Positions 7,491 to 60,826 of a DNA stretch of 64,000 bases are shown here, in pieces. The notes below the pieces were generated by a model, which did not search any database, was not told where the DNA came from, and saw nothing but the letters and a program-made list of their open reading frames with translations. Every line of letters starts with the position of its first letter. Within the stretch, counting starts at the first letter, position 1. Made by a program: the position numbers and the translations under genes. Origin of the DNA: Fervidobacterium changbaicum (GTDB lineage: Bacteria > Thermotogota > Thermotogae > Thermotogales > Fervidobacteriaceae); contig NZ_CP026721.1 of the NCBI RefSeq assembly GCF_004117075.1, positions 1,550,001 to 1,614,000 on the forward strand, given 5' to 3'.

Positions 7491-8792
7491 TTAGGAACTC
7501 GCAATATCGTTTGTGTGTTCATGAAACCGGGCTACGGATACACGTGGCTTTAGCCATGAACAAGTAGCCCTTTCCCTCCTTTCGAACATCAACGTTTTAG
7601 CTCTCTCAATTAGCCTTAATTTTGTATACTTTACACTGTCACTTATCTTTTCTCCACTAAGACTACTTATCGAAAAATATCCGCTGCTTCTTAAACCTGT
7701 TATTATCCCTTTCTCACCTTCACACTCAACTTTATCAAACCTTCTAAACCCTCTCACTTGCTTAACTGTGTTAATTGGTCTTTTCCCGCCCTTAATCGGA
7801 TTGGCTTTGTGAAGCGACCTGTTTTGTCGCCTGAAGAATTTACCGAAGTACCATTCGCTTGCTCTTTCTTGAATATTCCCACCAGCTATTACTAACGCGT
7901 CATCTCTGTGAGACTTCTCAAGTCCATACAGAATCCGTTTTTCTTTCGTAATACTACCATACGTGATTTCGACATGGTAGTTTTGCCTGAGTTTGTTGAC
8001 TATGTGCCACCCAATCGTTGAAACGTGAGCTACGTGCTTAAACACCTTTATTTGCTCTAATCTTGATTTAGGTATCTTTATCTTGCCTTCGTGCAACATC
8101 TTGTGTTCTTGTGTTGTTAGCACTATTAAATTGTTCGGTGCATCTGTACCACCTTCGCTTCTTGGAATAATGTGGTGGATTTCCAGTATTCCAGTTTTAC
8201 CAGACAGTTCAGACTTGTATCCAGCTCTCCAAAGGCAGTAATCTCTTACATCGCTAAATCCTTTCTGCGGACCATTTTGGTAGTCTTTTGCTTCTATGTC
8301 TGGATTTTGTACTTTCTGGATATCAAACGGTGCAACTTCCACAACGACTTTTGTTATCGGTATTATTTTGCTGAGCTTGTTTACTATCCTGACGTGCGCG
8401 TCTACTTTCCACTGCAAACTTGGAGGCAACCAACCATCTTCCTTTCGTCTGTTTAGAAATCTGGGTTTGCGATATCTTGTTTTTCTGTATCTTCTGAACC
8501 TTCTATGTTGCCTGCGCTCAAGTAGTAACTTTTTGATATCTTGTCTAAGCTGGACTTCTGCAGAGAATATCTCTTCTTTGTCAGTGACGGCAGATACACC
8601 TACAACCTTAGAGCCTGTGTCTATTCCAACGGTAACAGGTTGTGTGTAGTTTGTTGTTTCGTACAAAAGCTGGATGGTAAATGGTTCTCTGTTCACTACC
8701 TTCGCCAGTCCTTGTTTCAAGAGCCTTCTAACCTTTCCAAGCCTTTTTGTTGGCATTAGTGGTTTTCCATCTTTTGAAATCACGAATACCAT
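7491..8792 (-). CDS. iscB: IscB RNA-guided HNH/RuvC DNA endonuclease
   Basis: 433 residues with the full IscB architecture. The N-terminal PLMP motif is at 11-14. RuvC-I GIDTGS carries Asp58. An arginine-rich bridge helix spans about 93-117. RuvC-II VVEVAPFD carries Glu152. The HNH domain spans about 183-236, with EIHHIIPRSEGG (His206-His207), NNL near 220 and QEH at 230. RuvC-III SHRDDALVIA carries His295 and Asp298. IscB, the ancestor of Cas9, cleaves double-stranded DNA guided by an omega RNA encoded just upstream; such an RNA-like region lies at 8793-9019. All visible catalytic positions are intact, so it is probably active. The C-terminus after about residue 400 runs through the right-end hairpin of the element. 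Confidence 0.95.
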   Translation of the reverse strand: MVFVISKDGKPLMPTKRLGKVRRLLKQGLAKVVNREPFTIQLLYETTNYTQPVTVGIDTGSKVVGVSAVTDKEEIFSAEVQLRQDIKKLLLERRQHRRFRRYRKTRYRKPRFLNRRKEDGWLPPSLQWKVDAHVRIVNKLSKIIPITKVVVEVAPFDIQKVQNPDIEAKDYQNGPQKGFSDVRDYCLWRAGYKSELSGKTGILEIHHIIPRSEGGTDAPNNLIVLTTQEHKMLHEGKIKIPKSRLEQIKVFKHVAHVSTIGWHIVNKLRQNYHVEITYGSITKEKRILYGLEKSHRDDALVIAGGNIQERASEWYFGKFFRRQNRSLHKANPIKGGKRPINTVKQVRGFRRFDKVECEGEKGIITGLRSSGYFSISSLSGEKISDSVKYTKLRLIERAKTLMFERRERATCSWLKPRVSVARFHEHTNDIASS

Positions 8793-9019
8793 GCGGTAAG
8801 CCTCCTATCGGAGTTAGGTGCTCATCCCCAAAGTTAGGCTGGCTTGTCGTGTCTGCCACACTGTCCCTACCCATTAGGACTGTTTAGTGGCAGACGGCAG
8901 GGCATGGAACTTGAGCAGTATTCCATGGTGCCGTGACCAGCCTAACGTAGCCGAAAAGGCTGAGGGTAGTCAACCAGGGCTTTTTCCAAGCCCGCCACTT
9001 AAGTGGTGGGTGGTTGACC
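8793..9019 (-). ncRNA. Omega RNA (HEARO-type) of IscB
   Basis: This 227-base stretch directly upstream of iscB has no ORF of its own and shows nested perfect complementarity. 9011-9018 pairs with 8969-8976 (8 bp, left-end stem). 8937-8946 pairs with 8833-8842 (10 bp, long-range). 8851-8859 pairs with 8887-8895 (9 bp). 8903-8909 pairs with 8921-8927 (7 bp hairpin). AGCC-GAAA-type hairpin at 8949-8961. Position, length and fold match known omega RNAs, which carry a guide of about 16 bases at the 5' end taken from DNA flanking the element. Here that guide would come from the 3' end of trmI (above 9019). Exact RNA ends are not visible. Confidence 0.82.
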
Positions 9020-9811
9020 TTTTGTTTCTGCTTTACCTTTTGCAAGTGCGTTCACCTTTCTGGCAAAGATCATATAAGTTGTGTGTGCGACCATCCTGTC
9101 GACTGGTCTTAATCTATTTGGATATGGTTTGAATTGTCTCATCAACGATTCCCACACTTCTACATCGATAAACGGTAGTTCGTACATCTTCTCAAGTACC
9201 ATGGAGACCTGATTGACCGTTGGACAGATTACACCTATTCGACCACCGCCGGCAAGTGCCTCCCAGCACACCTGAATGTAGTTCTCTGGATCTGGTACGT
9301 CCAAAAGTAGAGCATCCACATTTGTTTCGTCAAATCCGAATGCGATATCACGGAGTTTCAATTCAACTCTGTTTACAAGTCCCCATTCTGTAAGGTTCTG
9401 GGTTGCGAGTTTGTAGAAGTCTTCGCGTCTTTCGTACGCGTAGACCTTCCCTTCTTCTCCAACAAGCCTTGCCATTGCAGCGCACATTGCACCGCTTCCA
9501 ACGCCAGTATCAATAACCCTACTGCCTGGTTTGATATCTAATTTCATAACAATGTAGCTTGAATCCTTTGGATAAACTATTTGAGTCTTCCTTTTCATCG
9601 AGAATATGTCGTCGATATAGGTAGGTTGCAGGAGGTAGTAAGATTTGCTTGTCTTACCAATCGTAATTATATCGCCGTAATTTTTCCCGATTATCTTATC
9701 AAATTCAACAACACCAAGGTGCGTACCTTTTTTCTTCCCTGCTTCTACTCTCACAAGGAATTTTGTCCCATCTTCTCCATAGAGTAAGACTCTATCTCCG
9801 TCTTTTATCAA
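8999..9811 (-). CDS. trmI: tRNA (adenine-N1)-methyltransferase TrmI
   Basis: 270 residues, normal for bacterial and archaeal TrmI, which methylates N1 of adenosine 58 (and 57 in some species) in the tRNA T-loop and supports growth at high temperature. A small N-terminal beta domain is followed by a Rossmann methyltransferase core. IDTGVGSGAMCAA near residue 94 is the SAM-binding loop. LLLDVPDPENY near 170 is the TrmI-specific motif IV (DxPxP). ICPTVNQV near 197 is conserved. The last residues (GQPPTT) and the stop codon are encoded by the left end of the iscB element, so the native C-terminus was slightly altered by the insertion; this should not touch the catalytic core. Confidence 0.93.
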   Translation of the reverse strand: MIKDGDRVLLYGEDGTKFLVRVEAGKKKGTHLGVVEFDKIIGKNYGDIITIGKTSKSYYLLQPTYIDDIFSMKRKTQIVYPKDSSYIVMKLDIKPGSRVIDTGVGSGAMCAAMARLVGEEGKVYAYERREDFYKLATQNLTEWGLVNRVELKLRDIAFGFDETNVDALLLDVPDPENYIQVCWEALAGGGRIGVICPTVNQVSMVLEKMYELPFIDVEVWESLMRQFKPYPNRLRPVDRMVAHTTYMIFARKVNALAKGKAETKGQPPTT

Positions 9812-11747: not shown

Positions 11748-12788
11748 GATGCTGTTAACTAAAAGTATTGAAAATTTCCAAAAACCGTATTATCTTCTTA
11801 TTAGTGGAACACCCCCCACCATCAATTCTCACAAAAAGGAGGTACTCCACTATGCAAAATTCTGTAGTCTCTTGCCCCAAATGCGGCTCTACCAACATCT
11901 ACAAAAACGGTCATGATAAGTACGGTAACCAACAATACTTTTGCAAAGACTGTAAGCGCACTTTCAGACTTGTTCATTCAAAAAAACACAAGCTCTTCTC
12001 TTTCCCTTATCCTAAATGCCCTGTCTGTGGAAAAACTATGCAAATCCACAAAATCAAAAAAGCCTTCGTTAAGTTCCGTTGCCGTTCTTGCCATACCAGA
12101 GACGAAATCCCAACTAACTTACCTCAATTTGTCCCTCTTCCTTTCGACTCTTTCAAGTTCTTCCGTTTCCCTATCTTTATTGTCCTTAAAGCCTTCGTCC
12201 TTTATTTCAAAGCTGTGTCCTTGCGTTCCATCAGAGACTCACTTAATATCAAAGTCTCTCATGTCGCTATCTACAAGTGGATCCTTAAGTTGTCTTGTTT
12301 CTTTTCCATCCTCGTTCCTGTAGATGCTTTCAAAGTCCATGGTGATGAAACTGTCGTTTTGTTTAAATCCAAAAAGTACTATGTTTGGTTCTTAGTTGAC
12401 CATGAGACGAATCTCATTGTTGCTTGGCATGTATCCAAATATCGCGATATGGGTCAAGTGAAGATATTGTTAGAGAAGTTCTTTGGTAACAACGAAAGAA
12501 CAATCGAACTAATTACAGATGGACTTGGTGCATATGGTGCAGTGAAGATACTATACAAGAATATCAATCATATTGTTGTGAGACTTGGGCAAAACAATCA
12601 ATGTGAATCGAAGTTTTCGTTATTCCAAGACTTTGTACGAGCCAAGCGTGGATTTAAGAATATTGACAATCTTCCAATGTACGTAAACAGTTTTTGTGTA
12701 GTGAGAAATCTCTTGAAACTGAACGGGAATGATATTGCGCGTGTTATGAGTGTTCTATTGTCTTCCATCACTACAAGTTAACAGCATC
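11748..12788 (+). mobile_element. IS6-like insertion sequence, copy 1 (1041 bp)
   Basis: Terminal inverted repeats are GATGCTGTTAACT (11748-11760) and AGTTAACAGCATC (12776-12788), a perfect 13 bp. A perfect 8-bp target duplication, CTTGCATA, flanks it at 11740-11747 and 12789-12796. Eight-base duplications and a CTGTT core in the repeats fit the IS6 group. The transposase-promoter end faces the start of the AMMECR1 gene. Reading outward on the minus strand from the element edge there are 11 bases, then GGGGGG, then the GTG start. Near-identity with the copies at 30610 and 47289 indicates recent activity. Confidence 0.93.
11852..12781 (+). CDS. Transposase of IS6-like element, copy 1
   Basis: 309 residues from the ATG at 11852, which has AAAAGGAGG 9 bases upstream; the longer frame starting at 11768 lacks a ribosome site and would begin inside the element's end. 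Two zinc ribbons come first: CPKC...CKDC at residues ~8-30 and CPVC...CRSC at ~50-72. A DDE-type core follows, with HGDET (Asp, ~178), ITDGLGAYG (Asp, ~222) and QCESKF (Glu, ~251). The stop (TAA) lies within the terminal repeat. It differs from copies 2 and 3 by a few residues (VDHETN against VEHDSN). IS6 assignment rests on end structure plus DDE spacing and is fairly, not fully, certain. Confidence 0.9.
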   Translation: MQNSVVSCPKCGSTNIYKNGHDKYGNQQYFCKDCKRTFRLVHSKKHKLFSFPYPKCPVCGKTMQIHKIKKAFVKFRCRSCHTRDEIPTNLPQFVPLPFDSFKFFRFPIFIVLKAFVLYFKAVSLRSIRDSLNIKVSHVAIYKWILKLSCFFSILVPVDAFKVHGDETVVLFKSKKYYVWFLVDHETNLIVAWHVSKYRDMGQVKILLEKFFGNNERTIELITDGLGAYGAVKILYKNINHIVVRLGQNNQCESKFSLFQDFVRAKRGFKNIDNLPMYVNSFCVVRNLLKLNGNDIARVMSVLLSSITTS

Positions 12789-60129: not shown

Positions 60130-60501
60130 ATGAAGCCAAGACCAGATGATTTTGCAGAAAGGTCGAAACACCTTCAGAACATGACCGATGAAGAACTCAA
60201 CGCCTATTTTTGGCAACTTGTTGAAAAAGTTGTCGATCCTCTTGTTGAACTTGCAAAGACGCACACAAGCCCATCTATCGAAAGGTCCGTTCTACTGAGG
60301 ATGGGGTTCAACAGTCTGGAAGCGAAGAAACTTGTAGACATGATCTTTGAACGAGGCCTTCTTGGGAAAGGTGCTGGTCACATCGTCTTGAGGATTGCCA
60401 AGGAACACAACATAGATTACATAGAGGCAGGTAGAAGGATGATAAACGGCGAATATTGGGATGATGTGGACAGGATTTTCAAAGGGGTCAACCACCCCTG
60501 A
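60130..60501 (+). CDS. oraS: D-ornithine 4,5-aminomutase, small subunit
   Basis: 123 residues. RPDDFAERSKHLQNMTDEELNAYFW near 4-28 and ARTHTSPSIERSVLLRMGF-like region near 45-63 (KTHTSPSIERSVLLRMG) are OraS features. OraS forms the heterodimer with OraE that moves the terminal amino group of D-ornithine to C4. The last residues GVNHP and the stop TGA come from the left end of the relic IscB element, as at trmI, so the native tail was changed by insertion. This probably has little effect on the helical core. Confidence 0.92.
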   Translation: MKPRPDDFAERSKHLQNMTDEELNAYFWQLVEKVVDPLVELAKTHTSPSIERSVLLRMGFNSLEAKKLVDMIFERGLLGKGAGHIVLRIAKEHNIDYIEAGRRMINGEYWDDVDRIFKGVNHP

Positions 60502-60641
60502 CTGAAGTCGAGAGCTTGTAATAGCCCTGGTTGACCAGCCTGAGCACTGGACCCGAAGGACAAGGGGATGAAGGTGCTACGTTGGTAGTAGGCTCAAGAC
60601 CCACTCCGGGATGCTTCTCCAGTCTCTGACCCTGGAAGTGA
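60486..60641 (+). ncRNA. Omega-RNA-like segment of the relic element
   Basis: It shares the left-end stem and AGCCCTGGTTGAC with the intact omega RNA. Beyond that the sequence differs, with other pairings (AGCAC near 60544 with GTGCT near 60575; ACTGG near 60547 with CCAGT near 60617). It may be a different omega-RNA subtype, and could still be transcribed with the ora operon. Without an intact iscB in cis it would need the IscB at 7491 to act. Ends uncertain. Confidence 0.6.
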
Positions 60642-60809
60642 GTGAGAGGGAGCGGATTTTTCGACATTAAGGATACGAATGGCAAAAGGATTAGTCAGGG
60701 AATAAGATATAAGTACTGCAAGCTGATTCAAATATCTGACGGCTGGCAATATAGCAAGAGGAAAGCAAACTATTACAAGTCTCACACGCCTGAAGTCGCG
60801 TGTCTCTAA
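60642..60809 (+). pseudogene. 3' remnant of iscB (C-terminal ~55 codons)
   Basis: In frame from 60642 to a TAA at 60807-60809. The encoded segment SGFFDIKDTNGKRI...IRYKYCKL aligns without gaps to SGYFSISSLSGEKI...VKYTKLRL of the intact IscB (~residues 372-394). The tail SHTPEVACL lies over the right-end hairpin, as in the intact gene. A stop (TGA) precedes 60642 in frame, and no start or upstream domain remains. It is therefore a decayed end, not a gene. Confidence 0.85.
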
Positions 60810-60826
60810 GTCGGAGGTGAAGAAGA

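What the first reader, a model, noticed from the sequence alone, without database searches (positions are those of the whole stretch)
7491..9019. Complete IscB-omega RNA system in a thermophile
All catalytic motifs of IscB (RuvC Asp58, Glu152, Asp298; HNH His206/207, Asn, His230) are intact. The 227-base upstream RNA folds with 7-10 bp perfect nested stems. No Y1 transposase accompanies it, so it is either mobilised in trans or kept as a stand-alone nuclease. A thermostable IscB is of mechanistic interest as a Cas9 ancestor. The predicted guide derives from the trmI 3' end.
Basis: partly seen in the sequence, partly recalled or inferred. Interest (0 to 1): 0.68.

Follow-up and report, generated by a model that had tools for sequence, protein, structure and literature searches.

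The report
IscB element with portable ribosome-binding end
The window holds an intact RNA-guided DNA-cutting mobile element (IscB with its guide RNA), one of several in this genome, and comparison with related genomes suggests that such elements insert at the translation starts of genes and carry a substitute ribosome-binding site that keeps the downstream gene, even an essential one, expressed.

Summary
Window 8813-9018(-) is a full-length HEARO/omega RNA (Rfam, 162 bits) and 7491-8792(-) an intact IscB (NCBIfam guided_IscB, 354 bits). The unit is a mobile element, 7523-9018(-), 1,496 bp, with four paralogues at 87-94% identity in the same genome; dN/dS is about 0.1. It has no transposase of its own. 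The genome has one intact Y1 transposase, beside a tnpB, so movement was probably in trans. The element inserted ten codons before the trmI stop; the guide is the trmI 3' end and the inferred target-adjacent motif is ATGAA.

A wider pattern emerged. In other genomes of the phylum, related elements abut RTGA, and in about 15-19 of 28 loci this is the start codon or ribosome-binding site of a co-directional gene. Empty sites in congeners confirm several (mutL, rimO, purH, comM, rplC). The right end carries AAAGGAGG, a hairpin and 6-9 nt before the AUG; AAAGGAGG is conserved regardless of reading frame. At a rpoD-like gene the native Shine-Dalgarno is missing and only the element's copy remains. 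I infer that the right end is a portable ribosome-binding site. The nuclease system itself is a known kind.

The parts
7523..9018 (-). whole IscB/omega RNA element (1,496 bp), type A
   Evidence: boundaries where five paralogues stop aligning
8813..9018 (-). omega (HEARO) RNA scaffold; its 5' end is the left end of the element
   Evidence: RF02033, 162.1 bits
9019..9038 (-). predicted guide, AGGTAAAGCAGAAACAAAAG, 3' end of trmI (16-20 nt; exact length not determined)
   Evidence: flank directly 5' of the RNA; position follows known IscB biology (inference)
7491..8792 (-). IscB ORF, 433 aa, all RuvC and HNH catalytic residues intact; HNH lacks the zinc-binding cysteines; last about 10 codons are host trmI tail
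8801..8806 (-). AGGAGG, Shine-Dalgarno of iscB at the 3' end of the RNA region
   Evidence: read from sequence
7575..7582 (-). AAAGGAGG, conserved motif in the right end, proposed Shine-Dalgarno for a downstream gene in relatives
7529..7570 (-). right-end hairpin, outer stem GGGCTAC/GTAGCCC
7518..7522 (-). ATGAA in the right flank: inferred insertion-site and target-adjacent motif
   Evidence: RTGA at all nine copies of this genome
8999..9811 (-). trmI-like methyltransferase ORF, its last codons replaced by element sequence (...ETKGQPPTT*)
7491..7522 (-). original 3' tail of trmI (DEHTNDIASS*), now read by the IscB frame
   Evidence: frame restoration on joining the flanks

Best explanation
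The feature is a non-autonomous IS200/IS605-type element carrying an omega RNA and IscB. It was moved in trans by a Y1 transposase and inserted scarlessly next to RTGA, here ten codons before the trmI stop. Host sequence 5' of the element supplies the guide (trmI 3' end). IscB with this RNA should cut the element-free allele, where the guide-matching sequence is followed by ATGAA, and so favour retention or re-copying of the element; it spares the filled site, where the guide sequence is followed by GTCAAC. Shown: gene, RNA, ends, copy number, RTGA rule, purifying selection. Inferred: cleavage, TAM recognition, trans mobilisation. Further inference from relatives: because RTGA is often a start codon (ATGA) or part of a Shine-Dalgarno (GGTGA), these elements land on translation starts, and their right end (AAAGGAGG, hairpin, 6-9 nt, AUG) acts as a portable ribosome-binding site that keeps the displaced gene translated. 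In the window copy itself no start codon is displaced.
For: IscB and HEARO matches; nine HEARO loci with sharp ends and RTGA right flanks in this genome; dN/dS about 0.1; exact empty sites in congeners for related elements; one intact Y1 elsewhere; different IscB lineages share right ends in one genus, as expected for a common trans transposase. For the right end: start codon or ribosome-binding site at about 19 of 28 loci against 3.2% of ATGA sites; AGG at 31 of 34 codons against 118 of 580 elsewhere, p 2e-17; motif kept in other frames or non-coding; rpoD-like gene with native Shine-Dalgarno missing and gltX remnant.
Against: No activity or expression data. The exact trmI empty site is not seen in any relative (unrelated tails). 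The single Y1 gene lies in a tnpA-tnpB pair whose ends were not matched to the IscB ends. AAAGGAGG can pair with CCTC loops in some right ends, so it may be partly sequestered. Several copies, including the window copy, are not at gene starts. Right ends are related by descent, so conservation is less independent than counts suggest.
Confidence: 0.75

Rival explanations
1. Domesticated stand-alone IscB: a nuclease kept for a host role (for example defence) with a fixed guide, no longer mobile.
For: Intact, under purifying selection, no transposase nearby.
Against: Absent from the orthologous trmI locus of congeners, multi-copy with different guides and precise ends, deleted and frameshifted sister copies. 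The guide matches the host's own trmI.
Confidence: 0.1
2. AAAGGAGG in the right end is a DNA recognition or structural motif for the transposase, not a ribosome-binding site; insertion at start codons only reflects the RTGA preference.
For: It lies beside the right-end hairpin, which transposases of this family recognise (general knowledge); it can pair with CCTC loop segments in some ends.
Against: The highly amplified G056 family has a similar hairpin without AAAGGAGG. The rpoD-like gene has lost its native Shine-Dalgarno and has only this one, and a gltX remnant keeps it. Start-codon junctions exceed the share expected among non-genic ATGA sites (17 of 55; p 0.01 for 15 of 28, 6e-5 for 19 of 28).
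Confidence: 0.25
3. AAAGGAGG is conserved only because it encodes a conserved Glu-Arg-Arg near the IscB C terminus.
For: In most copies it reads ERR.
Against: Extreme AGG bias at these codons (p 2e-17); same motif read as RKEG in L154 and non-coding in L149, L152 and L155; kept in the L158 deletion derivative and in the gltX remnant.
Confidence: 0.04

Closest known systems
HEARO / IscB-omega RNA systems (OMEGA family; RF02033, NF040563)
   Same: RRXRR/PLMP start, split RuvC, HNH, RNA directly upstream, guide at its 5' end, usually without tnpA nearby (PMC9755519)
   Different: HNH without zinc cysteines; RTGA insertion at gene starts and an end resembling a ribosome-binding site in this clade
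DtIsrB from Desulfovirgula thermocuniculi (PMC9581776)
   Same: thermophilic relative with NTGA/TTGA TAM and its own Shine-Dalgarno in the terminal hairpin of the RNA
   Different: IsrB lacks HNH; the report concerns the Shine-Dalgarno of isrB itself, not one for the host gene downstream
OgeuIscB and other solved IscBs (PDB 7utn, 7xht, 11hr)
   Same: same domain order; closest solved structures, E 3e-51
   Different: those keep the zinc-binding HNH and use other TAMs (NWRRNA from memory; NWRGNA preferred by engineered forms, PMC13180657)
HEARO elements of Weinberg et al. 2009
   Same: I recall, but could not check, that integration next to ATGA or GTGA was noted there
   Different: I do not recall a ribosome-binding function; the paper is not in the library

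Membership tests
IscB-omega RNA (HEARO) | IscB protein with RRXRR/PLMP, RuvC and HNH | tested here: met
   NF040563 354 bits over cut-off 175; Pfam RRXRR and HNH over cut-off
IscB-omega RNA (HEARO) | catalytic residues of RuvC and HNH intact | tested here: met
   D58, E152, D298; H206/H207, N220/221, H230
IscB-omega RNA (HEARO) | HEARO/omega RNA upstream of iscB | tested here: met
   RF02033 full length, 162.1 bits, gathering 83
IscB-omega RNA (HEARO) | RNA-guided cleavage of DNA beside a TAM | not testable with these tools
   TAM only inferred from flanks
IS200/IS605-type mobile element | scarless insertion without target duplication, at a short fixed motif | tested here: met
   shown for sister elements at exact empty sites; for the window copy only frame restoration
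IS200/IS605-type mobile element | hairpin near each end | tested here: met
   left-end hairpin in the RNA, right-end hairpin 7529-7570
IS200/IS605-type mobile element | Y1 transposase acting on these ends | tested here: inconclusive
   One intact Y1 gene in the genome, beside tnpB at 2159697; ends not matched

The most novel reading that the evidence does not exclude
A large group of HEARO/IscB elements is specialised for translation starts: the target-adjacent motif is the start codon (ATGA) or Shine-Dalgarno (GTGA), the guide is the host gene's own ribosome-binding region or the end of the gene before it, and the right end is a ribosome-binding site split by the transposition hairpin. This lets the element sit in front of essential genes such as rplC, gltX and a rpoD-like gene without silencing them.
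Probability: 0.6. Interest if true: 0.8.

Novelty: new variant of a known kind. Interest (0 to 1): 0.6.

Why it matters
The IscB itself adds one more member to a well-studied family. The right end, if it works as inferred, would show how a guide-RNA transposon survives by targeting the most conserved signal of bacterial genes and paying back the lost ribosome-binding site. It would also be a natural example of a Shine-Dalgarno working across a structured spacer, at essential genes. Both are testable with a reporter.

Tried and rejected
Guide plus TAM against viral contigs: two exact 20-nt hits, close to chance for an A-rich pattern, not used. Exact trmI empty site: relatives have unrelated tails, only frame restoration shown. 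Matching the ends of the single tnpA-tnpB element to the IscB ends: boundary not definable with one copy. Lachnospiraceae copies: left flanks end in Shine-Dalgarno-like sequence, but contigs break before the right end of most. Protein-level conservation of ERR as the cause of AAAGGAGG: rejected. Literature searches for start-codon insertion or ribosome-binding ends of IscB elements found nothing relevant in the open library. Structure prediction was not run because sequence evidence was decisive for membership.

Full report
Observation. The ORF at 7491-8792(-) is an IscB (NF040563 354 bits, PF14239 233 bits, PF01844 28 bits) and all catalytic residues are present. Upstream, 8813-9018(-) matches the complete HEARO model at 162 bits and the region folds with z -5.4. 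The finding is real and correctly placed, except that the element ends at 7523 and the last ten residues and stop codon of the ORF come from host DNA.

Element and copies. The genome (2.27 Mb, one contig) holds five type-A copies of about 1,500 bp at 87-94% identity, three type-B copies of about 1,625 bp, and one internally deleted type-B copy that also lies in this window (60487-60816). Ends are sharp: GTCAAC on the left and, on the right, a hairpin followed by host DNA that starts ATGAA (four of five A copies; the fifth ATGAT) or GTGAA (all four B copies). Type-A IscBs evolve with dN/dS of about 0.1. One A copy is frameshifted and one has lost its start codon. No HEARO locus has a Y1 gene nearby; one intact Y1 gene sits beside a tnpB elsewhere.

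Insertion in the window. Joining the flanks at ATGAAC restores the trmI frame through ...KAETKDEHTNDIASS*. The guide is the 3' end of trmI (9019-9038). In the filled site the guide sequence is followed by GTCAAC instead of ATGAA, which would protect the element's own copy. Cleavage is inferred from known IscB biology, not shown. The reported NTGA/TTGA TAM of thermophilic DtIsrB (PMC9581776) is close to RTGA.

Zinc-less HNH. The type-A clade has lost the CxxC pairs (YKSELSGKTGILEIHHIIPRS...LTTQEHK). The loss is shared by other genomes of the phylum and by Thermoanaerobacter, so it is a clade feature, not decay; type-B copies keep the cysteines.

Relatives. HEARO was found in 24 of 103 genomes of the phylum, up to 17 copies. 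I fetched 54 further loci and defined right ends where possible. Orthologous empty sites in congeners confirm the junctions at nucleotide level for B copies L036 and L037, for comM/yifB, rimO and purH and for mutL. At rplC the empty site is GGAG|GTGAAAAAATG. So the right flank RTGA is either a start codon or part of a Shine-Dalgarno. In 28 loci with the type-A right end (27 in the phylum, one in the class of Thermoanaerobacter), the junction is the start codon of a co-directional gene in about 15 and lies in or beside its ribosome-binding site in about 4 more. In this window only 17 of 539 ATGA sites are start codons, 17 of 55 if sites inside genes are left out. Left flanks show the displaced host Shine-Dalgarno: a match of five or more in 9 of 28, against about 2 of 28 in control windows, p 3e-4.

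Right end as ribosome-binding site. The right ends share AAAGGAGG, a few nucleotides, a hairpin whose outer stem differs between families but stays complementary, and 6-9 nt before the AUG. With the hairpin skipped, the distance from AAAGGAGG to AUG is 8-15 nt, mean 11. AAAGGAGG mostly encodes ERR, but the Arg codons are AGG in 31 of 34 cases against 20% elsewhere in the same genes. It also occurs in another frame (L154) and as non-coding sequence (L149, L152, L155). At a rpoD-like gene the host sequence ATGGAGGTAAACTAATCG, present in congeners, is missing, so only the element's motif is left upstream of the start. gltX carries a full element beside its start in one genome and, in another, a remnant of about 165 nt that keeps AAAGGAGG before the start. 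The G056 family, which ends at a different motif and is highly amplified, lacks AAAGGAGG, so transposition does not seem to need it. In type B of this genome the right end is ...GTCGGAG|GTGA, which rebuilds GGAGGTGA. I infer that the right end supplies translation initiation to the displaced gene. No expression data exist here, and pairing of AAAGGAGG with CCTC loops in some ends is an open alternative.

Limits. Clade names other than those in record titles are my inference; the search tool does not name genomes. Loci share right ends by descent, so conservation counts are not fully independent; insertion sites are. Gene starts were called from ORFs, profile matches and empty-site alignments, not from experiment. 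Essentiality of rpoD, rplC and gltX is general knowledge and was not checked for these species. The open-access library lacks the original HEARO paper and the main IscB transposition papers.

Verdict. Ordinary as an IscB system, a new member with a zinc-less HNH. The association of the clade with translation starts and a right end resembling a ribosome-binding site appears undescribed in what I could search, and is directly testable.

Noticed in passing
window 60487-60816 (+): Internally deleted type-B HEARO element (154 nt of left end joined to about 180 nt of right end, iscB gone) in the ribosome-binding site between two genes that look like ornithine aminomutase subunits; the empty site is intact in eight congeners.
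   Followed up: partly
L125-L139 (genome G056): About 13 nearly identical (98-99%) 900-nt elements made of omega RNA plus a truncated IscB (RuvC III and C terminus only, 229 aa), ending at ATRATAAA: a nuclease-less omega RNA element that has amplified recently.
   Followed up: partly
L149-L155 and L167-L169: Different IscB lineages in one genus share nearly the same right end, as if one transposase or recombination spread it.
   Followed up: no
L149 (genome G068): Element beside a rpoD-like sigma factor gene, with 18 bp of host sequence including the native Shine-Dalgarno missing compared with congeners.
   Followed up: partly
window 11768-12781 (+): DDE transposase of the IS240/IS6 kind with zinc ribbons, near the IscB element.
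   Followed up: no
L026 (Thermoanaerobacter thermocopriae): Same clade of IscB with the same right end, inserted four bases into a gene (ATGG|ATGAAC), with iscB itself apparently frameshifted.
   Followed up: partly
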